Source: Alistipes sp.
GTDB lineage: Bacteria; Bacteroidota; Bacteroidia; Bacteroidales; Rikenellaceae
Reading direction: 5' to 3'
Length of the DNA: 48,506 nucleotides
Assembly (NCBI GenBank): GCA_017546725.1
Contig: JAFYRX010000051.1
Coordinates: 1 to 48,506, forward strand
The position numbers were made by a program, and so were the translations under genes. Numbering within the stretch: position 1 is the stretch's first letter; every line of letters starts with the position of its first letter. The notes under the pieces were generated by a model. That model had not been told where the DNA came from. It did not search any database and saw nothing but the letters and a program-made list of their open reading frames with translations. Below, in pieces: positions 8,413 to 38,665 of this stretch.

Positions 8413-8449
8413 GACTCATATATTGATAAAACTAAAAATAGACAATACA

Positions 8450-10303: not shown

Positions 10304-10326
10304 TTGAACAGTAAAGGATTTCGATA

Positions 10327-11469: not shown

Positions 11470-11481
11470 CCGACATAGAGA

Positions 11482-13482: not shown

Positions 13483-13519
13483 AAACAAAACTTAATAACA
13501 ATCTAAAAACAAAACTATT

Positions 13520-14665: not shown

Positions 14666-14678
14666 TTTAACGATAATT

Positions 14679-21698: not shown

Positions 21699-22148
21699 CT
21701 ACTGCAAATCCGACGGGAGAGTCGCGCGAATATAGACACTGACATCAGCAGGGTTATCGAGCGCCGTCCACACCATTCTACCCTCAGTGAGTTCTGTAAC
21801 CACATAACGATGCGACCAATCGCCATTGCCATAATCGTAGTTACCACGAATGATTGCACCCTTCTCATCATCAGTATAGATGAAATAATGGCCCGTTATC
21901 GCGCGCATATATTGACTATCAATGTTCTGATATAGCGTATAGGTCTTATCGGCACGTACAAAGTCAATATAGACATAACTACCACTGCTTAACTCTCCGC
22001 CACTCCAACTATCCAAAGACCAACAACCTGCAATATTATTAGGAGTCACATCCAACGTCGGCTCAACGTAATCCTCCTTATCGTTACAAGAGACCGCCAC
22101 TGCAGTCACCATCATTGCCAAAACAAACAATCGAAAAATTCGTTTCAT
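21699..22148 (-). CDS. Lipocalin-like lipoprotein
   Basis: 149 aa with lipobox A-V-S-C (C21). The mature part starts with an acidic linker, then IAGCWSLDSW followed by beta-strand-rich sequence with short hairpins, as in the small lipocalin-like lipoproteins of Bacteroidota. No ligand can be assigned. It is the last gene of the long minus-strand block that starts at SusC, 13 nt after the DUF1573 gene. Confidence 0.65.
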   Translation of the reverse strand: MKRIFRLFVLAMMVTAVAVSCNDKEDYVEPTLDVTPNNIAGCWSLDSWSGGELSSGSYVYIDFVRADKTYTLYQNIDSQYMRAITGHYFIYTDDEKGAIIRGNYDYGNGDWSHRYVVTELTEGRMVWTALDNPADVSVYIRATLPSDLQ

Positions 22149-22161
22149 AATATATCATTTA

Positions 22162-22950
22162 TTATTTAACCACATTGAGCAATATCATTCGCTCGCGTGG
22201 CGGTAATGTCAAACCCATTATATATAGCCTAAGACTCTGCTCTTTTACTCCCTTTGTCGGGCTATATGTTATTATCAAATCACCCTCGGCACCACCTGCC
22301 AAAACCTCAGGTTCACTTCGCATCGTTACGCCTCGCGTTGACAACAATGTATCTTCTCGTAGGCGCATAGCACGCGTTCCTGCATTAAAGCAGGCGACAC
22401 GCATTGTCTGCTCTCGACCAGCCTCAACCTGCAAATTATCCTGTCGCAAACGCAGCATACCACGATGGTAAGGGTATTCACTTGCGTGCGAGGCCGAAGC
22501 CACAACTCGTCCTACAACATATAGCACCGCCGTCGGCACACTCTGCGAGAGATTGGTGTAGATATATACCCGCTGTTCGAAAGCCCCCATATGACCTTTG
22601 GGGTTATACGTCAATTTTATCTCGCCCTCGCGGCCTGACTTAACTACTTTATCAACGACCTCGGCCTTAAGGCACGAACAAGAACTCTTTACCGTGGTAA
22701 CAACGATAGTCTCTGTCCTATCGTTGCGCCACTTTACACTGCGCCCCCACTCAGCAGCATCCTCGCCTATATTGCCTACCGAGAACTTCACTCCATCAGC
22801 AAATGTCATCTTGGCATCGGCAACCGTACGGGGATTGGCTACACTATCCAATTTCGTCTGGGGTATAATCTTTATCTGCGCCAAAGTCTCTGCGCTTGCC
22901 AATAATGCAAACACCACACTCAGCACCGATATGACTACCCTACTGCACAT
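22162..22950 (-). CDS. DUF1573 domain exported protein
   Basis: 262 aa. I start at the ATG at 22950; four codons upstream in frame there is only a TTG inside the preceding gene's end. The signal peptide runs to about L-A-Q. The DUF1573 core is seen as an Ig-like domain with the VVTTVKSSCSCLKAEV motif (Cys-Ser-Cys) and LTYNPKGHMGAFEQRVYIYTN. A second, weaker Ig-like repeat follows (ACFNAGTRAMRLRED, then IITYSPTKGVKEQSLRLYI). DUF1573 proteins are common in Bacteroidota envelopes; their role is not established. The start is 2 nt from the stop of the protease gene, so they are co-translated. Confidence 0.8.
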   Translation of the reverse strand: MCSRVVISVLSVVFALLASAETLAQIKIIPQTKLDSVANPRTVADAKMTFADGVKFSVGNIGEDAAEWGRSVKWRNDRTETIVVTTVKSSCSCLKAEVVDKVVKSGREGEIKLTYNPKGHMGAFEQRVYIYTNLSQSVPTAVLYVVGRVVASASHASEYPYHRGMLRLRQDNLQVEAGREQTMRVACFNAGTRAMRLREDTLLSTRGVTMRSEPEVLAGGAEGDLIITYSPTKGVKEQSLRLYIMGLTLPPRERMILLNVVK

Positions 22951-22952
22951 TA

Positions 22953-24989
22953 CTACAACCAACCATTGTCGTTTGCTCCCTTACGGACTGTAATGGTGAA
23001 ATTATACGACTTACCATCCGAAGCCTTGATTACAGCCGACGTAACACCCTGCTGCAAACCCTTGAATATCAATTTTGCACCTTGCGACTCAACCGAAGCG
23101 ACTGCACTATCGGCAATCGACACGTCGAAAGAGAGCTTATCGCCACCTTCAAAATAGATATGAGGGGCAATAGCCACGCTCGCCTGCTCATCAATATACA
23201 AATTGGGGAATCGCATAGGAGCACCCGAATCACCAATTGCACGAAGGAAAGCATCGGCATTAACCTGTCCCGAGCCCATATTACCCTTGAAAAGCGAAAG
23301 GTTCATCTGCATAGGTTGCTGCGGACCTATATCGGCAACATAACGATAATAATCCTTATACCCAACCATATAGGCATCTATAGGTGTTGCTGTCGAAATC
23401 AGCATCTCCTGCAACTCCTCGGCCTTGAAGTGCAGACGCTGCTCAGCGGCATACGACACACCCAATGCAACGACACCCGATACGTGAGGACAAGCCATCG
23501 ATGTACCCTCCATATAGCCATAACCACTCTCGCTGACATTGTACGGGAGAGTTGATAGGATACAACCTACCTCACCATAATTATGCTCGGCATCGACATA
23601 ATCGAAATAGTAGTCTTGGTCACCACCAGGCGCTGACACACTCGTACCACCACCATAATTGGTATATACAGCGGGAGTAAAATCGGCTGCCGTAGCCGCT
23701 ACCGAGATATAATCATCCGAGGCTCCAGGGTAACCTGCCTGTGGAGCAGACTCATTACCGGCTGCAAACACTGCTATACCTCCTTCTATTGTTCCGTTGG
23801 CAGAGCCTGCATTATGGGTAAAATAATCCAAAGCATCCTTCTCCAACGGCGCTCCTCGCTCCCACTCCTCTTGTGAAGCAAAGCCCGTCTCGCCCCAGTC
23901 ATATGCATTAGCACTACCCGAAACATAGCCCCAACTACACTGTAACACGACTGCGCCATTGTCGGCCGCATACTTTATTGCTCGCGCCACAGCGATACTC
24001 GACGAGCCTACGTTACCAGAGAATATCTGGCATACCATAATCTTCACGCCAGCCTTCTTACTGCTACCGCCAGCGATAGAACTTACGCCCACACCATTAC
24101 CGTTACGTGCGGCAATAACTCCCGCAACGTGAGAACCGTGTCCCGAATCATAGGCATCGTTCCAAGTAATCAAACCAGTATCTTTGACAAAGTTGTAGCC
24201 ATTATAGTCACCCGCAAAACCGTTTCCGTCGTTATCCTCCATTGAACGGTGTACTTCATCCTCATTAATCCATATACTCTCCTGCAAATCGGGGTGCTCA
24301 ACAAAAACACCTTCGTCCAAAACAGCAACTACAACCGATTCATCGCCCATTGACTGCTCCCACGCCTTCTCGCACTGCACATCGGCATCCTTGACCGACT
24401 TCACCACTTCACCCTGGGTGAACATATCACCACGATTGGCAAGATTCCACTGCATAGCAAACAGAGGGTCATTCATCGAGCCTCGGGTAGCACCTGCCAT
24501 TGCTCTCGCTAATTTCTCCTTTGACAAAGGCGTCGCCTTACCCCTTGAAGCACGCTTGATTGTACGATTGAAATCGACACTCACAACCTCGCCCAACTCC
24601 TGGAAACGCTTGGCAACCTGCTCTGCATCCATATCACCGCCAAAACGCACAACATACCACTGATGTAGGCCCGAATTGCGAGTCACATCCTCTCGCGATG
24701 CATCAATGGGGAATACGCGCTCCAACTCATAAGCGCCTATAATCTCCAACACATCATCTACCGATGGCTGACCACTGCGAGTGGCTCCGCTACGGGTGGC
24801 TTGCGCATAAGAAATCATATCGGCCACATCGGGCGAGAATTTTACAATCAATTCGCTCTTGGCAAAGGGCTGCTCCTGAGCAATATCCTCATCCGAGAAA
24901 TCCTTCTGGCAACCAACGACAAGTGCCGATGCAACCAAAAGCAGGCTATATCTAAAAATTTGTCTTATCATCTCTCTAATTTTGACCAT
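22953..24989 (-). CDS. S8 family serine peptidase (subtilase), lipoprotein
   Basis: 678 aa from the ATG at 24989, 4 nt after the previous stop; the longer frame to 25106 overlaps that gene. Lipoprotein signal with V-V-G-C. Order: propeptide-like domain (SELIVKFSPDVADMI onwards, about 45-125), then the subtilase domain with all three catalytic residues: D225 (VLDEGV), H284 (SGHGSHVAG) and S497 (GTSMACPH). After about residue 590 there is a C-terminal beta-sandwich-like domain (DKLSFDVSIADSAVASVE). An active, surface- or periplasm-anchored endopeptidase is predicted. Its place in a SusCD operon suggests it cuts the imported substrate into peptides. Confidence 0.92.
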   Translation of the reverse strand: MVKIREMIRQIFRYSLLLVASALVVGCQKDFSDEDIAQEQPFAKSELIVKFSPDVADMISYAQATRSGATRSGQPSVDDVLEIIGAYELERVFPIDASREDVTRNSGLHQWYVVRFGGDMDAEQVAKRFQELGEVVSVDFNRTIKRASRGKATPLSKEKLARAMAGATRGSMNDPLFAMQWNLANRGDMFTQGEVVKSVKDADVQCEKAWEQSMGDESVVVAVLDEGVFVEHPDLQESIWINEDEVHRSMEDNDGNGFAGDYNGYNFVKDTGLITWNDAYDSGHGSHVAGVIAARNGNGVGVSSIAGGSSKKAGVKIMVCQIFSGNVGSSSIAVARAIKYAADNGAVVLQCSWGYVSGSANAYDWGETGFASQEEWERGAPLEKDALDYFTHNAGSANGTIEGGIAVFAAGNESAPQAGYPGASDDYISVAATAADFTPAVYTNYGGGTSVSAPGGDQDYYFDYVDAEHNYGEVGCILSTLPYNVSESGYGYMEGTSMACPHVSGVVALGVSYAAEQRLHFKAEELQEMLISTATPIDAYMVGYKDYYRYVADIGPQQPMQMNLSLFKGNMGSGQVNADAFLRAIGDSGAPMRFPNLYIDEQASVAIAPHIYFEGGDKLSFDVSIADSAVASVESQGAKLIFKGLQQGVTSAVIKASDGKSYNFTITVRKGANDNGWL

Positions 24990-24993
24990 TTTA

Positions 24994-26640
24994 CTACTCC
25001 TCGGGCGTAGTGATTGCCCACGGCTCCTTCTTTGTATAAATATCGTAATAGTATTGCAAGTTAGCAGGCTCATTCTCAAATCCAGCCTGCGTACCATCCT
25101 GTGCACGTCCCTCCTGCTGGAACACCAGACTATAAGGAATCCACCAATCGAGTGCAGGGTGATAGAGCAACCAATCAGGCAACTTACCCGTCAAACGATT
25201 GAAGTTAATGGCAAATCGTTTCGTCGATGGCATAACCTTTTTTATTCGGTTATCAGCCAAGAATTGAGGTAGTGTATCCACTCGCTCAATATCCTGCTGA
25301 GTATAGACGGGAACAGTATCATCGTCCTCGAAATCGGGTAATTCTCCCTGCAGATAATTAACCGACAAGACCAGCGTATCGAGGTCCCACTTAATAAGGT
25401 CAACGGGGAACTTAGGCTCATCGATAAAACCTCCGAGATTGGTCTTTGTAGTATTACTCAAATCGTAGACAGAGCTACGCTGATTGGCATTCATTATAAG
25501 CGAACGCAAAGCAGGGAAATTACTCTTTTTAAGCACCTCAGGTACTTGCTGAAAATTATTGGAACAAATATCGAGATACTCCAGATTCTTCAACTGCTTG
25601 AAACTATCGGGCAAATCTACCAAGCCATAGCTACCTATCGTCAGACGTTTTAACTGCGTCAAAGAACAAATATCATCGCCGAGTTCCAGATTCTTGAGGA
25701 ATGTGTTGGCATTACCGAAGAAATAGAGTTCTTCAGCGGCCGTCAAATAACGAACCTCATAAGGCAGAGGCTCATTGGTATTAAACAGCACAAACTGCGC
25801 AGACCTAACACGTCCCACATTTTCGGGCGTACATCCCTCCATAGATTCATCCCACAACACAACATTCTGCCACATCGTCATAGACTGCGAAGCATCCCAC
25901 TGCGTCATAACATCAAGATTACGCGCTACGGCAAGTAAAGCAGTTGAATCACCCGAACGTGTATCGGGAATAATCGGCTCGGCGCCCTCCTGCTTGACGT
26001 TGAGTACATCGCTACGTGATATCTCAACCTCATTTTTAGGGGTAAAGGTGACCTCCGCAAGACGCTCCTCGGGTACAGTATTTATATCCCAGCGGAAACG
26101 CACCGTTGTCTGACGAGGACGCATACCGCGATTAAGTGTCAAGGTATAATCCTCCGACTCAAGCCAATCAATATCTGACGGGATATTCACGTCAAACTCG
26201 ACATTCGAGCGCACCTTGACATCGAAGTAACGCTCCTCGCTTGTCTTATAGCACTCGACATCGAAAGCATTATCATCCAACTCGATAGTATAAGGAAAAC
26301 CCTGCTGCGTGACGGCTATCTCCTTTGACTGCATCGTACGCAGGTTCTGTATGCGTACAACTCCGTAACGAGGCTCGGCTGTCAATGCTGAATCAATCTT
26401 GAATTCACACGTCGCAGCACCTGCGCCATTGGCGGGAGAGACGGTTATCCAGGCATCGTCGGTCGATACAATCCAACTGTCGGCAATATCTACATTGATT
26501 CGCTTGACACCTCCTACAGCGTCCATATCGATGGAAGATGTTTCAACCGACATCGCAGAATCACTCTTGTCGTCACTACAAGCAACGGCAGCGACTACAC
26601 ATAAAAGCGTAAAAAGATATTTATATACTCTCATAACCAT
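24994..26640 (-). CDS. BACON plus leucine-rich-repeat lipoprotein
   Basis: 548 aa with lipobox A-V-A-C. Two BACON-type Ig domains follow (about 30-115 and 120-205; markers WIVSTDDAWITVSP and ITVTQQ/ VKQEG-like ends). The middle holds leucine-rich repeats: LTQLKRLTIGSYGLVDLP, LKNLEYLDICSNNFQQVP and further degenerate ones, then LTGKLPDWL near the C-terminus. BACON domains in this phylum are linked to glycan or mucin binding and LRRs to protein contacts; neither role is shown here. It is close kin in layout to the LRR protein upstream. Gaps are 6 nt before and 4 nt after. A start two codons later is equally possible. Confidence 0.78.
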   Translation of the reverse strand: MVMRVYKYLFTLLCVVAAVACSDDKSDSAMSVETSSIDMDAVGGVKRINVDIADSWIVSTDDAWITVSPANGAGAATCEFKIDSALTAEPRYGVVRIQNLRTMQSKEIAVTQQGFPYTIELDDNAFDVECYKTSEERYFDVKVRSNVEFDVNIPSDIDWLESEDYTLTLNRGMRPRQTTVRFRWDINTVPEERLAEVTFTPKNEVEISRSDVLNVKQEGAEPIIPDTRSGDSTALLAVARNLDVMTQWDASQSMTMWQNVVLWDESMEGCTPENVGRVRSAQFVLFNTNEPLPYEVRYLTAAEELYFFGNANTFLKNLELGDDICSLTQLKRLTIGSYGLVDLPDSFKQLKNLEYLDICSNNFQQVPEVLKKSNFPALRSLIMNANQRSSVYDLSNTTKTNLGGFIDEPKFPVDLIKWDLDTLVLSVNYLQGELPDFEDDDTVPVYTQQDIERVDTLPQFLADNRIKKVMPSTKRFAINFNRLTGKLPDWLLYHPALDWWIPYSLVFQQEGRAQDGTQAGFENEPANLQYYYDIYTKKEPWAITTPEE

Positions 26641-26646
26641 CAGTTT

Positions 26647-29331
26647 CTATTCCAACATTAAATCACAATTCAATATATTCTGCGTCTTGTCATACAACAA
26701 GATATAGGCACCAACCTGCCAAGCATAGCAGATATCCGATGCATCGAAGATAATGTTGGGGTTATCGCTAATATCCAGATAATAAATCAACGTAGAAATG
26801 TTATCATCCACTTTACGCAAATCGTTCGAGCCAAGATACAAGCCTCGCAAACCTTTGTGATTACCGATGCCCGTAGGCCATTCACGCAAACTGCGCTCAC
26901 CCTTGTCGTTACGCTGGCTCCTGACAGCAAGCACCGTAAGGCTCTCGCTATCCAACGGCTGATATGGGAAATTACTGAATGAGTTGAACGAGAGTTCTAC
27001 ACCATACAGATATGGCAGATTTGCGGCATTCATATCATACGGCAACTTCGTAAGTTTATTATACGAAAGGTCCAAAGACTGCAGATGTGGCGAATTTTTA
27101 TATGTGAACGAGCCCTCAGGAATCGACTCTATACCACAAGCACGCAAGATGATGTACGCTACCGACGAGTTGCTCTTGGCCAGCGCCACGGGATAGCGCT
27201 TCATATTGGGGTTATTTGACAAAGTAAAGGTCTCGACATTGATACCCTTATATTCGCCTCTCTCCTCGCCTTCGCAACCTGTAATATCATTAGCCGAAAA
27301 ATCTACCGACTTCATTCTGTATTGGCTCTCGGCAGAGAAGATATTAGGAATCTTCTTCAGGCGGTTATACGTCACCGAGAAGTTTTCTACATCGTCATAA
27401 CCACAGAAATAGCCATCCTCATCTACGGGCAGCGACTCAATTTTATTGTGGTCAAGATATAACTGCACGGGGGCAACATTGCGGCCCAGAGGATGCAACT
27501 TCGAGATGTTGTTAAATGCCAAATCCAAAAGGCCCAGCTTATGCATATTACTCATCGATGCTGGCAACTCCTCCAGCCTATTCTGACGAGCATACAAAAT
27601 CTGGATTTTCTCGGCTGCGGGACCTGTAGCCAAAGCATCAAATCCTGCATAAATCTGCTCGGCAGACCACTGCGCATTATTAGAAAGATTGAGCGAAATG
27701 AGTTCTGGCATCTGGCCTAAAACCATCGGGAAATTGGTAAGACGCGGACAATTATATATCTCCAAATCGGTACAAGATGTAAGTTCTGCCAACTCCTCGG
27801 GCACAGTCTCGATTTCACTGTTGGCAATATAGAGGTACTCCAACTTCTTGAGATTTCCTATCTCGGCCGGCAATGAACGCAGGCCGTTGCACAACGTACC
27901 GTGATTGGTATCGAAAAGATGCACAGTACGCTGTCCTCCCGTCGCCATATCAAAAATCTCCGACTCCTGCATCGTAGCATACAACGAAGTGGCAGGAATA
28001 GTGATATTATGCTCGGCCAACGCTCTTGCGATAGGCTCGGAAGTCTGCTGCGGAGTGTGGATAAGGTTAAGATAACTCTTATGATTTGCCAAACGATTAC
28101 GGTTACGCTCCGAGAGGCTCATATCCAACGAGAGCGACGGGTCGTAATTTATGACATTGGTATCGTTGTGCGTACCGAGATACAACTCGATAAGTTCGGT
28201 AAGTTGGCCCAATGCGGCAGGCATATGACCACGGAATCCGAAACAACTAATATCGATACGTGCCACACGACCATTAGCGTGAAGTTGCACACCTGGCTGG
28301 TCGCCCCACAAATCTACATCTTTATTAAAATCCCAATTGGTACCACGCTCCCACTCTTCACCATCATAATACCAATTCTCACCATCCAAAGCCTTCCATA
28401 TTTCATACAGAGCATAATAATCCTTGATATACTCAGCATTAATATCTATAGCCAAAACTATATCGACATCTGTGGTGATATTGTCCTCAATGGTAAATTG
28501 GTTTTCCGAAGGACGGTAGTTGCTCTCCAACAACTTCTTGCTGCTGTCTAACGCCTCGTATGACGTAACAACATAATTTCCTGCTGGAAGCGACAGCAAC
28601 GAATCACAAACGAGCGTAGAGGTCTGATAACCCTCTTTGTCACTCATATAATCATCCTCATCGAAATGCATCGCAAACTTTACGGGCAGACGCTCCAACC
28701 TTACGGGGCTCGACAATGCTCCCGACGCCTTCTTCTGCGCCACATTGAGAGTCACGAATGCTATCTCATCAAACGTATATTCGCGCTCTGCGGCACGAGT
28801 TGCAGCAGCGACGGCAGTATCCTTCACAAAGCGGAGGCGAGCCAATCCACGCGGCTCGACATTGACCGTAACATCGTGTTGCGTAAGACCGCCCTCTATA
28901 ACATCAAAGCCACTTTCGCTATTAGGTGTTCCGTTATAAATCAATTCATCGAGCGCATTATAGAGCGAGAAAGATATTAAATCATAGTGACCTACCAGCA
29001 ACTTTATTTTATCACTTCGCAGACCATACTCCACATTCTCGGCATCCTCCCTAGAGAGTGTCAACGTCTGCGCGATGGTTACGCCATCATAAACCAGAGT
29101 CACCTTAATCTTGCAGGCATCCGACAAATAATCGAGCATATCCTGCACGGCACGTGTCGAGGATGCTGACTCCGAAGGAGTGTATGATGCCTCCTTAAAT
29201 AATTTGAATTGAGCATATCCGTAGTTATGTTCACGATTATCTACCCCATCATCGGAGCATCCAACCATAAACGCCGACGCCACAGCGACCAGCACTACGC
29301 ATATGAAATTTCTGTACAGTTTCATCTTCAA
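26647..29331 (-). CDS. DUF4458-type leucine-rich-repeat lipoprotein
   Basis: 894 aa with lipobox F-M-V-G-C. The first part (GYAQFKLFKEASY, residues about 35-300) is a beta-rich N-terminal region that I recognise as DUF4458-like. From about residue 310 (YALYEIWKALDGENWYYDGEEWERGTNWDF) it continues into many LRR units: LPAEIGNLKKLEYLYIANSEIETVP, LTSCTDLEIYNCPRLTNFP, LQSLDLSYNKLTKLP and LRGLYLGSNDLRKVD. It is a surface-anchored binding protein by architecture. No promoter is obvious in the 115-nt gap upstream, which contains a terminator. Confidence 0.78.
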   Translation of the reverse strand: MKMKLYRNFICVVLVAVASAFMVGCSDDGVDNREHNYGYAQFKLFKEASYTPSESASSTRAVQDMLDYLSDACKIKVTLVYDGVTIAQTLTLSREDAENVEYGLRSDKIKLLVGHYDLISFSLYNALDELIYNGTPNSESGFDVIEGGLTQHDVTVNVEPRGLARLRFVKDTAVAAATRAAEREYTFDEIAFVTLNVAQKKASGALSSPVRLERLPVKFAMHFDEDDYMSDKEGYQTSTLVCDSLLSLPAGNYVVTSYEALDSSKKLLESNYRPSENQFTIEDNITTDVDIVLAIDINAEYIKDYYALYEIWKALDGENWYYDGEEWERGTNWDFNKDVDLWGDQPGVQLHANGRVARIDISCFGFRGHMPAALGQLTELIELYLGTHNDTNVINYDPSLSLDMSLSERNRNRLANHKSYLNLIHTPQQTSEPIARALAEHNITIPATSLYATMQESEIFDMATGGQRTVHLFDTNHGTLCNGLRSLPAEIGNLKKLEYLYIANSEIETVPEELAELTSCTDLEIYNCPRLTNFPMVLGQMPELISLNLSNNAQWSAEQIYAGFDALATGPAAEKIQILYARQNRLEELPASMSNMHKLGLLDLAFNNISKLHPLGRNVAPVQLYLDHNKIESLPVDEDGYFCGYDDVENFSVTYNRLKKIPNIFSAESQYRMKSVDFSANDITGCEGEERGEYKGINVETFTLSNNPNMKRYPVALAKSNSSVAYIILRACGIESIPEGSFTYKNSPHLQSLDLSYNKLTKLPYDMNAANLPYLYGVELSFNSFSNFPYQPLDSESLTVLAVRSQRNDKGERSLREWPTGIGNHKGLRGLYLGSNDLRKVDDNISTLIYYLDISDNPNIIFDASDICYAWQVGAYILLYDKTQNILNCDLMLE

Positions 29332-29394
29332 TTTAAGTCTCTAAAACTTGCTCTTCATTTATAGCACCCTTACCATAAGGGGATTCGGAACTTT

Positions 29395-29435
29395 CAAAAA
29401 AGATGACACCCCGCCCCTAACAAACGGGGTGTCAT
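29395..29435 (-). terminator. Terminator inside the SusCD-protease block
   Basis: An 11-bp perfect stem (ATGACACCCCG with CGGGGTGTCAT) is followed on the minus strand by CTTTTTTG. It begins 12 nt after the stop of the 650-aa lipoprotein gene, so it separates the SusC, SusD and two-lipoprotein part from the LRR and protease genes. Confidence 0.85.
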
Positions 29436-29446
29436 ATACATCTATA

Positions 29447-31399
29447 TTACTCGGCTGAAACCAATGTGCAGAGAATAACCACTTTATTCACCATATTGGC
29501 ATCTTTGAACAATACAGCACCAGGAGCCTCCTGGCCAGCACCTGCAGCTGTCATCAAAACAGCCTTAAGGCTCTCGCTATATTTAACCCAATCGCCAACA
29601 ACAGTATATTTCTTATAAGTATCAATACCTGTAAGTTCTACGTATTCTGCCATTGATGTACCTATAGGACTCTGGTATGTCAAATGATAAAACTCAGCAG
29701 GCATTGCTGACGAACTATACTCAGCAAAATATGTATCGTAGAGTTCATCACCCGACTTCAACTGCTTAATCGTAGCCTGCGCCTCTGCAGCCAAATCGGG
29801 ATTCGCAAACGCTACACCACCGTTACTTGATGCCGAAGCACTCTCGTTATAATGGAAGTAGATAGCAGAGTATGAACCATCGTTATACTCAACCAAGATA
29901 ACAGCCTCGTAATCACCCGAATTAGTATTCAACGAGCCCTCGGCTGTTGCCGCTTTAATATTAGCCACAATCTTGAAACGAGAGAGATTGTTATCAGAAT
30001 AGAAACAGTCGCACTCAACCCAAGAATCTTCGTTCAACTCCACGAAACTACCCTCTACATCGTAAGAATATACCTTGAACGATGCTACAGGACGAGATGT
30101 AACGAATGAAGTAGCATCGGGTGCATATTTTGCATCCTTACCAAAATAGAATATATCGTACTTGCTACCAAGATAGAGATTAGCCAAAGCACCTTCAGTA
30201 AACCAATAGTCAATTGTGGCATCAGCCTCGGCAAACTTAGCACAAGTTTCGTCCAACTGATTTACGGCTATCGTAGCAGGCTCAGAGTACTGTACAACCA
30301 TTGTCATCAACGAAGAGGCATACTTTTCAGCCACAACTCCACCCGCAACCAATGCCTCGCCATCGGCAGGAGCAAAGTTCTTTGCAAACACAAATACATA
30401 AGCCTTGCGAGCAGATGCTCCATCGTAAGACTCCACGTCTGAAATGCTTACCTTACGGCCCTGAATTGCAGCACCCGACTCATCCCACTCATCTGCTGCG
30501 ATTGTAAACCAGTCCACAGCCTCGCCATTCTCGCCACAAACCTTCATCACGACATCCTTACCCGATGTAACTACGCCATTAGGAGCAACAACAATCTCAC
30601 CTGCTGCATTCAAAGCGCTCTGCTCGGGGAAACCGTCGAAGGCAACGTAGTCGTTATAACCGCCAATCTCAATCTTGAAACTGCTGACAACATTACTTCC
30701 GCTCAAAATATTAACCGTAGCAACCTCGCTATCGGCAGGGATATGAGTAGCAGCCGCTTGCAGAACATACTCCGTAGCACCAGCCTCACCATTCTCTACT
30801 GCCTGCAACCACTCGGGGCCCTCAACTGTATAGTCAAAGTTTGCAACAATCTTTACAGGAACATAGAATGTTGATTCAACATCGCTGCCAAATACAGGCA
30901 TACCGTAAACCATCTTCAGCACATCATCACTACCCAATGCCTCCTCGCTAAATTCTGCAGAATAAGCACCATACTCGTTTACAACAGGGGCATAAACTGA
31001 AACCTCGCGCTTTGTCGTAGGATATGTAATAGCAGCAATAACCTCCGATACGCCGTTCATAGTCAAAGTAACCTCACCGACAGGAGCATTATCGAAAACC
31101 GTTACATCGGCAACATTTACCTTAATAGTCTGCTTGCCAGCAACACCCGACAGTGTGTTTGTCGTAGTCTCGCCGTTAAGTAATTGGAAGTAGGTGTACG
31201 TATTTTGAGAAATCGTAGCCTTCCAATCATAATTAGCCTCAAATGAGAGTTCGATTACATCGCCAGCAACAGCCGTTTTTGTAACCTTCTTGGGGAATGA
31301 AGGTGCGGGAGAAGAATCCTTATCCTTCGTACACGCAGTACCCAAAAGCACTATGCTTAAAAGTGTACTACACAAGAAAAGAAAATAGTTCTTTTTCAT
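29447..31399 (-). CDS. Unrecognised 650-aa lipoprotein of the SusCD locus
   Basis: 650 aa from the ATG at 31399, where a lipoprotein signal with lipobox L-G-T-A-C begins; the longer frame to 31459 adds a non-signal extension. The N-terminal part (about 30-120) is an Ig-like domain with VAGDVIELSFEANYDWKAT, similar to BACON domains. The rest is a mix of beta-rich domains with many Ala, Val and Asp residues; no catalytic motif is visible. A DUF5003-like family is possible, but I am not sure. As the fourth gene of the unit, it is likely an accessory surface-binding lipoprotein of the SusCD complex. Confidence 0.7.
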   Translation of the reverse strand: MKKNYFLFLCSTLLSIVLLGTACTKDKDSSPAPSFPKKVTKTAVAGDVIELSFEANYDWKATISQNTYTYFQLLNGETTTNTLSGVAGKQTIKVNVADVTVFDNAPVGEVTLTMNGVSEVIAAITYPTTKREVSVYAPVVNEYGAYSAEFSEEALGSDDVLKMVYGMPVFGSDVESTFYVPVKIVANFDYTVEGPEWLQAVENGEAGATEYVLQAAATHIPADSEVATVNILSGSNVVSSFKIEIGGYNDYVAFDGFPEQSALNAAGEIVVAPNGVVTSGKDVVMKVCGENGEAVDWFTIAADEWDESGAAIQGRKVSISDVESYDGASARKAYVFVFAKNFAPADGEALVAGGVVAEKYASSLMTMVVQYSEPATIAVNQLDETCAKFAEADATIDYWFTEGALANLYLGSKYDIFYFGKDAKYAPDATSFVTSRPVASFKVYSYDVEGSFVELNEDSWVECDCFYSDNNLSRFKIVANIKAATAEGSLNTNSGDYEAVILVEYNDGSYSAIYFHYNESASASSNGGVAFANPDLAAEAQATIKQLKSGDELYDTYFAEYSSSAMPAEFYHLTYQSPIGTSMAEYVELTGIDTYKKYTVVGDWVKYSESLKAVLMTAAGAGQEAPGAVLFKDANMVNKVVILCTLVSAE

Positions 31400-31462
31400 A
31401 TTTTTAGAGTTTTTAATTTTGTTTTGCCTTATTACATTTGTTAATGATTGGTGCATCACCCA

Positions 31463-32380
31463 TTACATACCCTCCTTTTGAAGGCGTTCAGCCTCTTCAT
31501 CGCTAACCCACTCAAGGATGTTGTAATAATGACCTACGGTACCTATCATCTCGCCCAGATTCTCAACATACACGTGATTCCACAACTCAACAAAGCGCTG
31601 ACACGAATTGAAGTATGAGGGGTAATAGAAACTGTGCGTCGTAAGGATATGATTATCACCCAAAATCTGGCCAAATACCGAAGCCTCATCGCTCAGCACC
31701 TGGTCCTTATCCATCGTAACCAACGGATTAGCGGCATCTTCGGGATGGAACTTTATGGTCAAATCATATCCATCGTAGAAACAACTGCGCAAGATGACGG
31801 TATTCTCCTCTGTCGGATGTACCTCGGTGCGGATAAGACGCTGATACGACGGGTTGTCACCAGGATAATCGCGCAACAGAAGCGAAGTCACTACACACCA
31901 ACCTGTAAAGTTCTCTCTCACGAACGGACAACTCTTATACATCACGACTTTCGTCTGGTCGCTATCCTCATACAGATTCCACTTTAACTTATCGGGCATA
32001 ACCAATCTTAGCACAAAACCCAACGAGTCGGTAGGCTCGATGTTCTCATACAAGCCCTGCACCTTGACCTCTGCTGCGAGTTCACCCGCAGGTATTGTCA
32101 CGCTATTGCTCAACAGGCGATAGTGCTTGCCCTCGATGGCGTTGCTACCCTTGTCAACCACCTCGACTCCAAACGTACGGTCATAACCACACGCGACAGT
32201 AGAGGCGACAGCCACACCAAAGTATTCGTTGTCGGCCAATACCATATTGGTCGATTGCTGCTCGGAGAACATCACATACTCGGCATCGGAATATGTTATA
32301 TACTCCTCGTCGCACGAGATAAACAACGACGTTGCGAACGCTGCAACAAAAAACAGAAATATATTTCTCATACTCTTCAT
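31463..32380 (-). CDS. DUF4843/DUF4984-like SusCD accessory lipoprotein
   Basis: 305 aa with lipobox F-I-S-C. The start DEEYITYSDAEYVMFSEQQ and the following Calx-beta-like strand series (EGKHYRLLSNSVTIPAGELAAEVKV) are typical of the DUF4843-type lipoproteins that follow SusD in many Bacteroidales loci. The C-terminal half is beta-rich, with FTGWCVVTSLLLRDYPGDNPSYQ, which suggests the DUF4984 family. No enzymatic motif is seen. It starts 3 nt after the SusD stop, indicating tight co-translation. Role inferred: a surface accessory subunit of the SusCD transporter. Confidence 0.75.
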   Translation of the reverse strand: MKSMRNIFLFFVAAFATSLFISCDEEYITYSDAEYVMFSEQQSTNMVLADNEYFGVAVASTVACGYDRTFGVEVVDKGSNAIEGKHYRLLSNSVTIPAGELAAEVKVQGLYENIEPTDSLGFVLRLVMPDKLKWNLYEDSDQTKVVMYKSCPFVRENFTGWCVVTSLLLRDYPGDNPSYQRLIRTEVHPTEENTVILRSCFYDGYDLTIKFHPEDAANPLVTMDKDQVLSDEASVFGQILGDNHILTTHSFYYPSYFNSCQRFVELWNHVYVENLGEMIGTVGHYYNILEWVSDEEAERLQKEGM

Positions 32381-32383
32381 CTA

Positions 32384-33925
32384 CTATTTATTACTTTCGT
32401 TGGGTTGTACCTCCGAGCCCGGAGCCTCAATCTCGTGTTGCGGGATAGGCCATACGAACAATGGATTATCGGCTGCAATATGCAACGAACTACCCTCCTC
32501 CAAAGAGTTGCTCTGTGGGCTACGGGTAAAGCCCTCGCCATTATTATAGAGTTTACCCCAACGCTTAAGGTCATTTAGGCGGAAACCCTCCATAAAGAGT
32601 TCGCGTACACGCTCATCTGAGATGGTCTGCAAATAGTTGCCCTCATTAACCGAAATCGAGCCACCCGATGCAAAGCGGCTTTCGCGCAATGTCGAAAGGT
32701 CCTTCGATGCGGCTGAGAAATTAGGAGTCGCACATCGGCAATAAGCCTCGGCACGAATCAGATACTGCTCTGCCAAGCGGAAAGGCTTAGGCATCGAAAC
32801 GTGATAAATCAAAGCCGACGAGATAAAATCCTGATTACCATAATACTTTACGAGCAACGGCCACGTCAGGTTATGGTCATAACCCGTAGCAAATTCAGCA
32901 AAGTACGAACTATAGCGCATATCCGATGTCGCGTAGAGATTCAGCACCCACTGCGCAGGCACATAATCGGGATAGTAATATGTATAATCGTTGTTAAAGT
33001 TCAGGAAATGCTGGCCCAGCGCACCACCATAAGATGTAGTTGTAAAGCCCACACGCCAGATAATCTCCGTTGCCAAATCATACTGCCACATATAGTCGAA
33101 GTAGGTCATCGACGAGGTGTAGGCGGTATTGGCCGATGAGAGCGAGTACTCTCTGTTCTTATGGTCTATAACCTTTGATGAATACTCGATAGCCGTCTCC
33201 CAATCCTGCATATTCAACGCCACGCGTGCGTGTAAGGCATAGGCTACACTCTTGGTTATAAACACCGAGCTGTATGCATCATTATCCTCATCGAGAATAT
33301 TCTCGGCTGCAGCCAAATCCTCCAATACGAAATCGTAAGAGTCCTTCAACGATGCTCGGCGGGCAGGCTCTGTCTCGGAATACTTCTTGCGCAAGACCAC
33401 ACCCAACTCCTGCTCGGCTGTAGCGGGGTCATAAGCCTTGCAGAAATTCTTCAACAGTTCCGAATAGGCCAATGCGCGGATGGTATATACCTCACCCGTA
33501 TATTGTTCCAACGCACCGATACGTTCATCATCGGTCTGCACAGCCATAACACCATCAATACGCTCAAGGTAGAAATTACAATTCGAGATAACGCTATACA
33601 GAGCAGCATACACCGACTCTATCTCGGCATTTGTCGGACGTATATCCCACTGCCAGAACGTACCAAAGGTATTTGTGTAACCATCTACGGCATACACCAA
33701 ATCGGCCTGAATATCGGGCAATAGTGTAAGATAACCGCTAAACAAGGCATTGCTCTTCAGCAAAGCATAGATTCCTGTCAAGGTCTGTTCAGCATCGGCA
33801 AACGACTTCATAGCCTCATCTTCGGGTATAGCCGACGAAGGCTCTTTGTCGAGGCACGACGTTACTACCAAAAGCGCCATCAATGCAGCAACAGCCAACT
33901 TTATATTATATATGATATTCTTCAT
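32384..33925 (-). CDS. SusD/RagB family substrate-binding lipoprotein
   Basis: 513 aa with lipobox V-V-T-S-C. The early PSSAIPEDEAMKSFADAEQTLTGIYALLKS, the TPR-like helices (VYTIRALAYSELLKNFCKAYDP), and the C-terminal EQYLIRAEAYCR and ERVRELFMEGFRLNDLKRWGK are standard SusD features. SusD forms the lid on the SusC barrel and delivers the substrate. The gap to SusC is 6 nt. Confidence 0.95.
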   Translation of the reverse strand: MKNIIYNIKLAVAALMALLVVTSCLDKEPSSAIPEDEAMKSFADAEQTLTGIYALLKSNALFSGYLTLLPDIQADLVYAVDGYTNTFGTFWQWDIRPTNAEIESVYAALYSVISNCNFYLERIDGVMAVQTDDERIGALEQYTGEVYTIRALAYSELLKNFCKAYDPATAEQELGVVLRKKYSETEPARRASLKDSYDFVLEDLAAAENILDEDNDAYSSVFITKSVAYALHARVALNMQDWETAIEYSSKVIDHKNREYSLSSANTAYTSSMTYFDYMWQYDLATEIIWRVGFTTTSYGGALGQHFLNFNNDYTYYYPDYVPAQWVLNLYATSDMRYSSYFAEFATGYDHNLTWPLLVKYYGNQDFISSALIYHVSMPKPFRLAEQYLIRAEAYCRCATPNFSAASKDLSTLRESRFASGGSISVNEGNYLQTISDERVRELFMEGFRLNDLKRWGKLYNNGEGFTRSPQSNSLEEGSSLHIAADNPLFVWPIPQHEIEAPGSEVQPNESNK

Positions 33926-33931
33926 AGCGCA

Positions 33932-36883
33932 TTAGAATGTTAAGTCAAGACCAAATGTAAACTGACGCGACATAGGATACTGCGCCGCATAGATGTTTGC
34001 CGTACCCTCGGGGTCCAAACCCGAGAACTTTGAGAATGTGAGCAGATTTTGCGCCTGTGCATAGATTCTAATGCCGCTGAATACTCGAGTCTTTTTCAGC
34101 ACATTGGCTGGCAACGAGTAACTCAACATCACATTCTTCAATCTCAAGAACGAGGCATCCTCCAACAGACGGCTGTCGAACTCAGTATATTCACCGTGAC
34201 GCGGAATATCGGTCACATCACCAGGCTGCTTCCAGCGCGAGAGCAGACGCGATGACTGGTTATAGGATGCAAAACGGCCATTCGACTCATCGAAATAGCG
34301 GTCGTTATTTATCATCCATCTGTCAGCTACCCAACTGAACTGCGTACTCAACGAAAGGCCCTTCCAACTCAAGGCTGTACCAAAACCACCCTGCCAAGGT
34401 GCGTGATAACTCTTGCCTACCAGCACCTTATCCTCATCACGCAACTCGGTTGTCAGTTCACCATTCTTGTCATACCACAGTGCATCACCATTAGCAGGGT
34501 TTACACCTGCATAGCGGTTGATATAGAACTCACCCAGAGGATGTCCCACGACCAACTTGGTATTGGTATTCGAACGCTCATACTCCTTTACGCCATTGTA
34601 CAACTCGACAATCTTATTATGATTGTAAGATACGTTGGTATTAACCGACCAGTTAAAGTCCTTGGTCGCCACGAGCGTTGCATTGAGATTCACCTCGGCT
34701 CCGGCATTAACCATCACTCCGACATTATCCCAATAATAACCATAACCTGTTGTAGAGTATGGCGCAGGCACCTCCATCAACATATCAGACGTACGCTTGT
34801 AATAGAGTTCCAAATCGGCATTGAGTCTGTTCCAGAAACCTGCGTGGATAGCGAAGTTCGTAGTCCAAGGCTTCTCCCAGCCGAGATTCTCGTTACCTGG
34901 TTGCATCAATGCCACACCTGCATCGCCAACATAATCCAAGCCACCACCTACGAGCGCCAAATGCTCGTAATTGGGGATTGACGAGTTACCCGAGGTACCT
35001 GTCGAGAGCGAGAGTTGCGCTGTCGTAAGCCATCTGGGGCCCGACTGCATAAACTTCTCATTACGCAAATCCCACATAAAACCTACAGACCAGAATGCTG
35101 CCCAACGACGAGACTTTCCGAAACGTGACGAACCGTCGGCACGCACCGAAGCCTCAACGAAATAGGTATTACGATAGTTATACTCTCCACGCGAGAAGAA
35201 CGACAAGAATCCATAATCGGAATCCGTCGTATCGCTCCACGACGTAGCACGCGTTCCAGTAGAGATATTTGTCAGACGGTCATTGTTCTGGCCTTTGGTC
35301 ATAAGGCTGAATGCCTCGTAATGATAATCAACACCCTCGTGGCCCAACATAAAATTGAACGAATGGTCATCATCAAGGTTGAAACGGTAATTAGCAGTAT
35401 TCGTCACCGTCAAAGTGTGACCATCGGTTGAAGAGCGTGATGCTGAGCCCTGTCCCTGATTGGGCGCATAACTCGGATACGACACGCCAAAACCTGTGGT
35501 ATGAGAATAATCTACACCCAACTGCGAACGCAAGGTAAGGCCCTCAACGGGTGTTGCCTCGGCATAGATTGTCGAAATAAGTTTATACTTTTTATACGTC
35601 ACGGGGTTATTCTCAAGCCACTCCAGAGGATTCTGGCCATTACCCTTCCACGTTCCGTCATTAATAGAGGCCAATGAGCCATCGGCACGATAGGGATTCC
35701 AATACGGCATCATAAAACGTGCTGCCGAAATGGGTGTTACCAACGTGTATGAGCCCTCATCTGCCTGCTGGATATTCTGGTAGTTGAGCATCGTATTACT
35801 ACCCACCTTCAGCCACTCGGCTGCCTTACGGTCGAAGTTGGCTCGCAGAGAATAACGCTCAAACATTGAGCCTACGGCTGTACCGTCCTGATTGTAATAG
35901 CCGCCCGAAAGATAATAATTACTCTTGTCGTCGGCTCCCGACACCGTCACCTCGTGACTCTGCAACAAGGCCGAAGAGTTAAAAACCTCCTCCATCCAAT
36001 TTACATCGGTTTGACTCAAGACGTTGTAATTCTGTCCTTCGGTCATCCCAATCTCCTTCTCGTAGGCTATACGCTCAGCGGTATTCATCAAATCCCACTT
36101 ACCACTTGCCACCTGCGAGAAACCCATCTGCATACGATATTCGATTCTCGGGCGCTCGGCACGACGACCACGTTTGGTAGTGATTACAATCACACCATTA
36201 GCGGCTCGCGCACCATAAATTGAGGTCGAAGCAGCATCCTTCAACACCGACAAAGACTCTATATCGGCCGGATTGATTGTATTAAAATCACTGCTCGAGA
36301 TAGGCACTCCATCAAGAATATACAACGGAGCGGTACCCGAATTGATTGAGTTAGTACCACGAATTGTCATAACTGCCGATGCACTCGGCTCTCCCGTATT
36401 CGACAGTACGGTAAGACCTGCAACCTGACCTTGCAGAGCCTGGTCAAAGGCTGCTGTAGGAGTAGATTCTATCTTTTCGGTCTTGACACTTGCGACAGAA
36501 CCCGCGACGGTACCCTTTTTACGAGTACCATAGGCAATGACAACAACATCGTCGATAGACTCACTATCGGTCACCATCTCGACATTATACTGCACACTGC
36601 TCGCATCTTTGGGCACACGCCACTCAACATTCTTGAAACCCAGATACGAGAAGGTCAGCACACTGCCACTCTTTGCCTTGATGCTGTATTTGCCATCAAC
36701 ATCCGTAGCAACACCTTGCATATCCTCCGTCACAACAGAGACACCAATCAGAGGTTGTTTATCTTCCGCTGATATAACTCTACCGCTGACGGTAACCATA
36801 GCAGCCTGCTGCGCATAAAGCGTAGGCAGACAACATAACGCAAAAATTAAACTAAATAACAGTTTTCGACTATACATTTTCAT
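33932..36883 (-). CDS. SusC/RagA family TonB-linked outer-membrane transporter
   Basis: 983 aa from the ATG at 36883. Signal peptide ending L-Y-A-Q; carboxypeptidase-like N-terminal domain (VSGRVISAEDKQPLIGVSV); TonB box region and plug (DDVVVIAYGTRKKG, LQGQVAGLTV, IRGTNSINSGTAPLYILDGVPI); then a beta barrel ending in LDLTF. It imports bulky nutrients through the outer membrane with TonB energy. RagA-type members carry oligopeptides and many SusC members carry glycans; here the neighbours include a protease and no glycosidase. The adjacent minus-strand promoter is very close to the start codon. Confidence 0.95.
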   Translation of the reverse strand: MKMYSRKLLFSLIFALCCLPTLYAQQAAMVTVSGRVISAEDKQPLIGVSVVTEDMQGVATDVDGKYSIKAKSGSVLTFSYLGFKNVEWRVPKDASSVQYNVEMVTDSESIDDVVVIAYGTRKKGTVAGSVASVKTEKIESTPTAAFDQALQGQVAGLTVLSNTGEPSASAVMTIRGTNSINSGTAPLYILDGVPISSSDFNTINPADIESLSVLKDAASTSIYGARAANGVIVITTKRGRRAERPRIEYRMQMGFSQVASGKWDLMNTAERIAYEKEIGMTEGQNYNVLSQTDVNWMEEVFNSSALLQSHEVTVSGADDKSNYYLSGGYYNQDGTAVGSMFERYSLRANFDRKAAEWLKVGSNTMLNYQNIQQADEGSYTLVTPISAARFMMPYWNPYRADGSLASINDGTWKGNGQNPLEWLENNPVTYKKYKLISTIYAEATPVEGLTLRSQLGVDYSHTTGFGVSYPSYAPNQGQGSASRSSTDGHTLTVTNTANYRFNLDDDHSFNFMLGHEGVDYHYEAFSLMTKGQNNDRLTNISTGTRATSWSDTTDSDYGFLSFFSRGEYNYRNTYFVEASVRADGSSRFGKSRRWAAFWSVGFMWDLRNEKFMQSGPRWLTTAQLSLSTGTSGNSSIPNYEHLALVGGGLDYVGDAGVALMQPGNENLGWEKPWTTNFAIHAGFWNRLNADLELYYKRTSDMLMEVPAPYSTTGYGYYWDNVGVMVNAGAEVNLNATLVATKDFNWSVNTNVSYNHNKIVELYNGVKEYERSNTNTKLVVGHPLGEFYINRYAGVNPANGDALWYDKNGELTTELRDEDKVLVGKSYHAPWQGGFGTALSWKGLSLSTQFSWVADRWMINNDRYFDESNGRFASYNQSSRLLSRWKQPGDVTDIPRHGEYTEFDSRLLEDASFLRLKNVMLSYSLPANVLKKTRVFSGIRIYAQAQNLLTFSKFSGLDPEGTANIYAAQYPMSRQFTFGLDLTF

Positions 36884-36889
36884 AATGTG

Positions 36890-36920
36890 CAAAAATACGA
36901 CATTATGATGAGATTACAAA
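36890..36920 (-). promoter_or_regulatory. Consensus promoter of the SusCD operon
   Basis: On the minus strand TTTG (36917-36920), 19 nt, then TATTTTTG (36890-36897): an exact Bacteroidota -33/-7 pair. The first SusC ATG follows only 6 nt after the -7 box, so the transcript would have almost no leader. Confidence 0.72.
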
Positions 36921-37027: not shown

Positions 37028-37067
37028 CAAAATAATGCCGTAAGATATTTTATAATCCTACGGCATT
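37028..37067 (-). terminator. Probable terminator after gadC
   Basis: A 9-bp stem (AATGCCGTA with TACGGCATT) has a 16-nt A/T-rich loop and is followed on the minus strand by ATTTTG. It lies 33 nt after the gadC stop. The loop is long and the T-run short, so it is a moderate candidate. Confidence 0.55.
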
Positions 37068-38569: not shown

Positions 38570-38610
38570 AGATTATTATTTTCAGGTTAAACTTTCGTTG
38601 TAAACTTTTC

Positions 38611-38655
38611 AAAACGACTGCACTCTGGAGAACATCCTCTCCCCAAAGTGCAGTC
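38611..38655 (-). terminator. Hairpin between gadB and gadC, possible attenuator
   Basis: Arms GACTGCACT (38616-38624) and AGTGCAGTC (38647-38655) pair perfectly, and the interior can extend the stem further (GGAGA with TCTCC). The minus strand continues CGTTTTGAAAAG, a short T tract. It starts 10 nt after the gadB stop, in front of gadC. Confidence 0.6.
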
Positions 38656-38665
38656 AATCTGTTCG

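What the first reader, a model, noticed from the sequence alone, without database searches (positions are those of the whole stretch)
21699..36883. SusCD locus built around LRR/BACON surface proteins and a subtilase, with no glycosidase
Nine genes in one direction encode SusC, SusD, two accessory lipoproteins, two LRR lipoproteins (one with BACON domains), an S8 protease with an intact triad, a DUF1573 protein and a lipocalin-like protein. SusCD loci usually pair with glycoside hydrolases; here the only enzyme is a protease. From memory, the B. thetaiotaomicron SusCD complex BT2261-BT2264, which has two extra lipoproteins, was crystallised with bound peptides, and RagAB of P. gingivalis imports oligopeptides. 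The arrangement here suggests a protein-foraging machine: LRR proteins hold the target, the subtilase cuts it, SusCD imports the peptides. The combination of two LRR binders and a subtilase is the best candidate for a little-described system in this window.
Basis: partly seen in the sequence, partly recalled or inferred. Interest (0 to 1): 0.8.

Follow-up and report, generated by a model that had tools for sequence, protein, structure and literature searches.

The report
Conserved RagAB-type peptide-foraging gene cassette
Nine neighbouring genes in a gut bacterium appear to build a cell-surface machine that holds proteins, cuts them and imports the pieces; the same genes in the same order recur in many related gut bacteria and, judged by published annotation, in a standard laboratory species, yet their job has hardly been studied.

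Summary
In detail: nine co-directional genes (21699-36883, minus strand) encode SusC, SusD, a DUF4984 lipoprotein, a BACON-type lipoprotein, a DUF4458+LRR lipoprotein, a BACON+LRR lipoprotein, an S8 subtilase, a DUF1573 protein and a lipocalin-like lipoprotein, with no CAZyme inside. The block is a conserved unit: 87 of 113 distinct loci carry all nine in this order; I judge 20 of the other 26 cut by contig ends and 6 real variants. The S8 triad is intact in 101 of 101. The SusC is far closer to the peptide importer RagA (620 bits) than to other solved SusCs (391 or less); two control SusCs are not. By annotation the B. thetaiotaomicron counterpart is BT0207-BT0213, not BT2261-2264. No flanking gene cluster recurs in more than 12 loci; a GH2 gene and a sigma-factor gene each recur in 4. 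Complications: two loci keep SusCD and the LRR genes but have a third LRR protein in place of the protease module; three keep the LRR/protease genes without SusCD. So importer and protease look like modules around a DUF4984-BACON-LRR-LRR core. Best reading: RagAB-type protein/peptide capture (0.55).

The parts
33932..36883 (-). SusC/RagA-type TonB-dependent outer-membrane importer, 983 aa; CarboxypepD_reg domain, plug, barrel; no STN signalling domain found by Pfam
   Evidence: TIGR04056 805.8 bits, Pfam; nearest solved structure RagA 620 bits
32384..33925 (-). SusD/RagB-type lid lipoprotein, 513 aa
   Evidence: PF07980, PF14322; nearest solved RagB 93 bits
31463..32380 (-). DUF4984 (weak DUF4843 match over the N-terminal part) accessory lipoprotein, 305 aa
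   Evidence: PF16372 155 bits; relatives directly behind a SusC and a SusD-like gene in 11 of 11 distant loci fetched
29447..31399 (-). fast-evolving BACON-type accessory lipoprotein (gene 4), 650 aa
   Evidence: no Pfam match itself; 22 of 59 members of the slot match BACON; median identity 22%
29403..29435 (-). terminator-like hairpin between genes 4 and 5 (14 pairs, then CTTTTTT); partial termination is inferred
   Evidence: strict pattern in 13 of 103 loci in this gap, in 0 or 1 at each other gap inside the block
26647..29325 (-). DUF4458 + LRR_10 + leucine-rich-repeat lipoprotein, 892 aa
   Evidence: full-length relative 4ecn_A, E 3e-165
24994..26640 (-). BACON + LRR lipoprotein, 548 aa
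   Evidence: PF13004 36.9 bits, LRR models
22953..24989 (-). S8 subtilase lipoprotein with Peptidase_S8_N domain, 678 aa
22162..22950 (-). DUF1573 protein, signal peptide without lipobox, 262 aa
   Evidence: PF07610 71 bits; lipobox-like pattern in 19 of 102
21699..22148 (-). Lipocalin_4-like lipoprotein, 149 aa
   Evidence: PF13648 20.8 bits, just under the cut-off of 22.4
36890..36920 (-). Bacteroidetes-type promoter TTTG-N19-TATTTTTG, -7 box ending 6 nt before the SusC ATG
   Evidence: consensus recalled

Best explanation
A RagAB-type protein/peptide-foraging system. Shown: a conserved nine-gene unit with a RagA-like SusC, a RagB-like lid, five further surface-type lipoproteins (DUF4984, BACON, two LRR, lipocalin-like), a lipoprotein subtilase with intact triad and a secreted DUF1573 protein, without a CAZyme or dedicated regulator conserved beside it. 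Inferred: the LRR and BACON lipoproteins capture proteins at the outer surface, the subtilase (after removal of its propeptide) cuts them, and SusCD, with the DUF4984 protein as companion of the lid, imports the oligopeptides with TonB energy; the DUF1573 and lipocalin-like proteins serve the protease half. Inferred: a leaky terminator after gene 4 gives more importer than binder/protease in this clade. The core is DUF4984-BACON-LRR-LRR; importer and protease are modules that can be lost or replaced.
For: SusC: RagA 620 bits against 391 (8aa4), 333 (5t3r), 246 (8ypu) and 123 (BT2264); control SusCs give RagA 350 vs 8aa4 372 (L049) and 232 vs 417 (L121), i.e. not RagA-nearest. SusD best with RagB. 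Order kept in 87 of 113 distinct loci; pairwise distances of SusC, SusD, DUF4984, both LRR proteins and S8 correlate at 0.83-0.92 in 82 loci (plain species descent also gives this). S8 triad 101 of 101. Lipobox in at least 98% of orthologues of seven products, with 1.2-2.2 acidic residues in the five behind the Cys against 0.6-0.9 further in (loose rule, which in the window's DUF4984 protein picked a later Cys, and which also fired for 10 of 94 SusC and 19 of 102 DUF1573). No flank cluster in more than 12 loci. Distant DUF4984-like genes follow a SusC and a SusD-like gene in 11 of 11 loci, and in three of these an S8 protease comes next (L181, L185 by Pfam; L184 59% identical to L181). A second SusCD-S8 locus type exists in the genus (L048-L050). 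The own genome, 85% complete, shows only two full SusC genes, so this is probably a main importer (inference).
Against: L152 and L153 have SusCD, DUF4984, a gene 4 and both LRR proteins but no S8, DUF1573 or lipocalin; a third LRR protein follows. G035, G040 and G041 keep the other seven genes but lack SusCD beside them, and the search of those genomes at E up to 1e-60 gave no SusC above 33% identity. A GH2 gene lies upstream in 4 loci and a sigma-factor gene downstream in 4. Similarity to RagA over the whole chain does not prove peptide as substrate; the reference set is small. No binding, cleavage or induction data. In PMC10434189 the B. theta genes fall in low iron (weakly supported in that table), which protein foraging does not predict. 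The one tested BT_0212 mutant kept the protease activity examined (PMC6282197).
Confidence: 0.55

Rival explanations
1. Glycopeptide acquisition: the LRR/BACON proteins hold mucin-like glycoproteins, the subtilase frees glycopeptides, SusCD imports them, and sugars are removed by enzymes coded elsewhere, as proposed for B. theta BT4240-4250 with an M60-like peptidase.
For: A published model of surface peptidase plus SusCD for mucin glycopeptides (PMC11992087, passages). BACON domains are often discussed as mucin or glycan binders (recalled).
Against: That locus has GH2 and GH109 enzymes, a sugar kinase and CBM32 domains; none is in this block and a GH2 gene recurs beside it in 4 loci only. S8, not M60.
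Confidence: 0.13
2. A surface attachment or protein-attack system in which import is secondary: LRR proteins bind one conserved host or bacterial protein and the subtilase trims it.
For: Three relatives keep the LRR and protease genes without SusCD; exposed positions on the LRR beta-strand face of the large LRR protein vary less than other polar LRR positions (entropy 1.18 vs 1.71, p 8e-5), as for a fixed partner.
Against: SusCD is present in 89 of the 93 distinct loci that I judge not cut by a contig end. LRR strand positions can be conserved for structural reasons, or because the partner is another member of the complex; in the shorter LRR protein the difference is not significant (p 0.28).
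Confidence: 0.15
3. The subtilase is a maturation protease for the complex's own lipoproteins, and SusCD imports something else (glycan, metal chelate or cofactor).
For: The protease is present only as a module; the B. theta counterpart is lowered in low iron in one table (PMC10434189).
Against: The protease-less relatives keep related lipoproteins; none of the ten recurrent flank clusters scanned is a chelate or cofactor gene; SusC is RagA-nearest.
Confidence: 0.1
4. An ordinary glycan utilisation locus whose CAZymes lie elsewhere in the genome.
For: Most studied SusCD loci serve glycans (recalled); a GH2 gene lies upstream in 4 loci.
Against: No CAZyme in the block or conserved beside it, RagA-like SusC, protease in the operon.
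Confidence: 0.07

Closest known systems
B. thetaiotaomicron BT0207-BT0213 (and presumably BT0206)
   Same: Annotated SusD (BT0207), DUF4984 (BT0208), BACON (BT0211), S8 peptidase (BT0212), DUF1573 (BT0213), i.e. the same families in the same order with two genes between (PMC10434189, passage). A BT_0212 mutant was made and still cleaved EspB (PMC6282197, passage). A full-length relative of the large LRR protein, 4ecn_A, is in the PDB (that it is BT_0210 is recalled).
   Different: No functional study of the locus turned up in the searches made. Its sequences were not compared here directly.
RagAB of Porphyromonas gingivalis
   Same: Nearest solved SusC and SusD; imports peptides after proteolysis (PMC11817032 passages; PMC7782687 passages).
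   Different: The passages seen name gingipains as the proteases and mention no LRR, DUF4984 or S8 gene at the rag locus. Same class of importer, larger cassette here.
B. thetaiotaomicron BT2261-2264
   Same: SusCD with oligopeptide in the structure (PMC7782687, passages); two extra lipoproteins (recalled).
   Different: SusC only 123 bits, partial; the accessory lipoproteins show no match; no protease or LRR gene there (recalled).
B. thetaiotaomicron BT4240-4250 mucin locus
   Same: Surface peptidase proposed to work with SusCD (PMC11992087, passages).
   Different: M60-like peptidase with CBM32, glycosidases and a sugar kinase in the locus.
SusC-SusD-S8 loci of the same genus (L048-L050)
   Same: S8 with the same propeptide domain and a lipocalin-like gene behind it (Pfam on L049; L050 by similarity).
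   Different: No DUF4984, LRR or DUF1573 hit; the L049 SusC is about equally near RagA and 8aa4.

Membership tests
SusCD/RagAB importers | SusC/RagA family protein over curated cut-off with signature | tested here: met
   TIGR04056 805.8 (cut-off 368.25), TIGR04057 62.2 (46.2)
SusCD/RagAB importers | adjacent SusD/RagB lid lipoprotein | tested here: met
   PF07980 and PF14322, 6 bp downstream
RagAB-type peptide importer | SusC nearest to RagA among solved SusCs | tested here: met
   620 vs 391 or less; two controls not RagA-nearest
RagAB-type peptide importer | binds and transports oligopeptides | not testable with these tools
   needs protein, structure or growth assays
Polysaccharide utilisation locus | linked CAZyme | tested here: not met
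   none in the block; in flanks a GH2 gene in 4 loci only, a GH88-like neighbour in the window and L051 only
Polysaccharide utilisation locus | linked sensor/regulator (HTCS, ECF/anti-sigma) | tested here: not met
   none in the block; a sigma-70-type gene recurs downstream in 4 loci only; SusC without STN domain
BT2261-2264-type complex | SusC and the two extra lipoproteins homologous | tested here: not met
   BT2264 partial, 123 bits; no match for either lipoprotein
BT0207-BT0213 cassette | same nine gene families in the same order | tested here: inconclusive
   five of nine families in order by the annotation in PMC10434189; sequences not compared; BT0209 and BT0210 inferred as gene 4 and the large LRR gene
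S8 subtilase | Asp-His-Ser triad and oxyanion Asn | tested here: met
   101 of 101
S8 subtilase | proteolytic activity | not testable with these tools
   needs assay

The most novel reading that the evidence does not exclude
A modular protein utilisome, built like a glycan PUL but for polypeptide: a DUF4984-BACON-LRR-LRR capture core that docks a RagAB importer plus subtilase (full form), an importer plus a third LRR protein and no protease, or a protease without importer, and whose LRR binders recognise one conserved protein target and not food protein in general.
Probability: 0.25. Interest if true: 0.75.

Novelty: new variant of a known kind. Interest (0 to 1): 0.52.

Why it matters
How gut Bacteroidales take up protein is far less understood than glycan uptake. 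This is a conserved, protease-bearing SusCD cassette with a RagA-type importer that B. theta also has by annotation, so the idea of a protein utilisome can be tested with gene removals in a laboratory strain. In the source genome (85% complete) it is one of only two full SusC systems found, so it is probably central to that organism's nutrition.

Tried and rejected
BT2261-2264 as closest relative: rejected on scores. CAZyme-linked PUL: rejected. Structure prediction of the DUF4984 and BACON-type lipoproteins: not possible, so no fold search was run. Profile searches of both against the PDB: nothing convincing. Literature searches by locus tag were noisy; two papers naming genes of the B. theta block emerged. 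Rfam on the window: two tRNAs only. The sigma-70 scan shows no clear excess (35 vs 28.3 expected). Terminator-like sites as a whole are not in excess (14 vs 12.2); only the one between genes 4 and 5 is argued, from its recurrence. A blast of the window S8 against the L185 S8 gave no useful alignment, and the window S8 found none of the ORFs of L176-L186 at E 1e-5, so those proteases are another subfamily.

Rows dropped before counts: 131 oriented loci were collapsed to 113 by identical large-LRR protein. L048-L050 were left out of the cassette counts (no large-LRR hit). G435 was matched but not fetched. Flank clustering used at most 4 kb on a side and ORFs of at least 100 aa: 95 loci with SusC (median 2.3 kb available) and 101 with the lipocalin gene (median 4 kb). 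Its answer lists the 25 largest of 246 clusters; one representative of each of ten clusters was scanned with Pfam and one, not all 418 ORFs.
Full report
Observation. Nine minus-strand ORFs run from 36883 to 21699 with gaps of 2-13 bp, except 63 bp between genes 3 and 4 and 121 bp between genes 4 and 5 (coordinates). Families are SusC, SusD, DUF4984, an unmatched lipoprotein, DUF4458/LRR_10/LRR, BACON/LRR, Peptidase_S8 with Peptidase_S8_N, DUF1573 and a sub-threshold Lipocalin_4. A terminator-like hairpin lies between GadC and the block (37034-37067). A Bacteroidetes-type promoter (consensus recalled) lies just before SusC (36890-36920); the exact pattern is found upstream of SusC in 32 of 92 distinct loci against 1.0 expected from mononucleotide shuffles. 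In the whole window the pattern occurs three times, 0.7 expected, and 5 of 100 shuffles reach three, so the single site means little without the relatives.

Source. The window is a contig of a 2.14 Mb, 85% complete genome. The genome shows two full SusC genes and one partial match; the second SusC is followed by a SusD-size gene and a 614-aa lipoprotein gene (L187; not scanned with Pfam).

Conservation. A subtilase search over 101 genomes found matches in 57 at E 1e-20. Loci were fetched around the subtilase, the large LRR protein (the best 80 of 256 kept) and DUF4984 in the order and in the genus of G318. After orientation there were 131 loci including the window; gene order was kept in 130, and the exception (L121) involves a different SusC. 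Identical large-LRR proteins were collapsed to 113 distinct loci, of which 87 are complete with an ORF of at least 350 aa in the gene 4 slot; 26 are incomplete. From the free space listed there I judge 20 of these cut by contig ends and 6 real variants: L040, L041, L047 (no SusCD), L152, L153 (no S8, DUF1573, lipocalin) and L121 (genes 5-9 only). DUF4984, a marker of the cassette, is single-copy in 43 of 61 same-genus genomes including the own, and occurs in 44 of 101 in all; in 12 of 60 of the G318 genus; in 3 of 295 genomes drawn across the order. So it is common in some genera and patchy overall.

Variants. In G035, G040 and G041 other genes lie where SusCD would be; searching those genomes at E up to 1e-60 gave no match in G035 and none above 33% identity in the other two (the genomes are 84-98% complete). 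L152 and L153 have a further LRR lipoprotein and an unmatched lipoprotein behind BACON-LRR. The shared core is therefore DUF4984, gene 4, large LRR and BACON-LRR; L121 suggests that even this can be split, at the point where the hairpin lies.

Importer type. With the PDB as reference the SusC scores 620 bits with RagA, 391 with 8aa4, 333 with 5t3r, 246 with 8ypu and 123 (best stretch partial) with BT2264. A SusC from the second S8 locus type scores 350 with RagA and 372 with 8aa4; one from an unrelated pair scores 232 and 417. SusD is nearest RagB. The reference set is small and the test is of descent, not of substrate.

Protease. The triad and oxyanion Asn are invariant in 101 of 101. In distant Bacteroidota, DUF4984-like genes follow a SusC and a SusD-like gene in 11 of 11 loci fetched, of 12 matched outside the window (the SusD of L179 is recognised by size and place only). 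In three of the 11 an S8 of another subfamily comes next; in two a Porin_10 gene comes next and in a third one gene further on. This suggests that subtilases joined such loci more than once; no background rate was measured.

Surface display. Seven products carry a lipobox in at least 98% of orthologues, with acidic residues enriched behind the Cys, which fits the Bacteroidetes surface-export signal (recalled). The rule was loose: it also fired for 10 of 94 SusC and 19 of 102 DUF1573, and in the window's DUF4984 protein it chose a later Cys than the real one (Cys23).

Rates. Median identity to the window: SusC 73, SusD 64, DUF4984 57, large LRR 57, S8 57, BACON-LRR 51, lipocalin 46, DUF1573 33, gene 4 22%. 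Gene 4 also varies from 386 to 921 aa. Exposed positions on the LRR strand face are less variable than other polar LRR positions (1.18 vs 1.71, p 8e-5); this may reflect a fixed ligand, a partner in the complex, or LRR structure. For the shorter LRR protein the difference is not significant (p 0.28).

Internal hairpin. Of 103 loci, 31 have a gene 4-gene 5 gap of at least 60 nt; 29 of these fold better than mononucleotide shuffles at z below -2 and 18 carry a CCCCG-loop-GGGGYGGG stem. The strict terminator pattern occurs in 13 of 103 here and in 0 or 1 loci at each other gap inside the block, against 24 of 100 behind the last gene. Inference: partial termination that favours the importer half in this clade; the other 72 loci have shorter gaps, and the short gaps elsewhere leave less room for a hairpin, so the contrast is partly one of length.

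Context. Flanks of up to 4 kb in 95 loci (upstream) and 101 loci (downstream) gave 246 clusters; the largest, an 841-aa lipoprotein gene directly downstream (weak Big_10), occurs in 12 loci. Representatives of ten further clusters are an esterase, a DUF6359/DUF4493 protein, Hsp70, a purple-acid-phosphatase-like protein, an unmatched protein, an amidohydrolase, an aromatic amino acid lyase, an acyltransferase (5-7 loci each), a GH2 enzyme and a sigma-70-type factor (4 loci each). No regulator or CAZyme is conserved with the block.

Literature (CC0/CC BY/CC BY-SA part of PubMed Central only). PMC10434189, table passages: BT0207-08 RagB/SusD and DUF4984, -12.7 to -2.5; BT0211-13 BACON, S8 and DUF1573, -5.9 to -2.6 in low iron, with a second column of 0.084-0.57 and 0.152-0.241 that I take as adjusted P (header not read). 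PMC6282197, passages: a BT_0212 mutant still cleaves EspB. DUF4984 occurs in one paper; BT0206 together with 'Bacteroides thetaiotaomicron' in none. PMC7029141, passages: SusC genes beside peptidase genes in flavobacteria. So the concept exists; this cassette was not described as a system in what was searched.

Verdict. A conserved RagAB-type cassette, most likely for protein or peptide foraging; new variant of a known kind. The substrate is unproved.

Noticed in passing
window 36883-36897: The -7 box ends 6 nt before the SusC ATG, so the SusC mRNA may be leaderless or nearly so; of the 32 loci with the exact pattern, 17 have this spacing (6-8 nt), 14 have 24-69 nt and one 238 nt.
   Followed up: partly
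window 29403-29435: GC-rich terminator-like hairpin inside the operon, recurrent in relatives, with compensating stem changes judged by eye.
   Followed up: partly
L048, L049, L050: A second SusCD-S8 locus type in the genus (SusC, SusD, unmatched 775-791 aa lipoprotein, S8, lipocalin-like gene; Pfam on L049 only); some genomes hold up to six S8 matches, some in tandem.
   Followed up: partly
L040, L041, L047: Cassettes without SusCD that keep the other seven genes.
   Followed up: partly
window 37100-40081: Amino acid permease (GadC-like) and glutamate decarboxylase directly upstream on the same strand, with a terminator-like hairpin behind them; seen beside the block in one relative only (L051).
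   Followed up: no
L091 17754-18995, L096 18931-20412: An amidohydrolase and an aromatic amino acid lyase (histidine-degradation-like, by recall) lie downstream on the other strand in five loci each.
   Followed up: no
window 6601-16106: Plus-strand cluster with two GH2 enzymes, an aldose epimerase, an unmatched 666-aa protein, a galactokinase-type kinase and a SASA esterase, without SusCD.
   Followed up: no
G000 (whole genome): Only two full SusC genes in 2.14 Mb; relatives G014, G015, G030 have four matches each, others up to 25, the number at which scoring stopped.
   Followed up: partly
L044 17317-19842: An 841-aa lipoprotein gene (weak Big_10) directly behind the lipocalin gene, its cluster in 12 loci: a possible tenth member in one subclade.
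   Followed up: no
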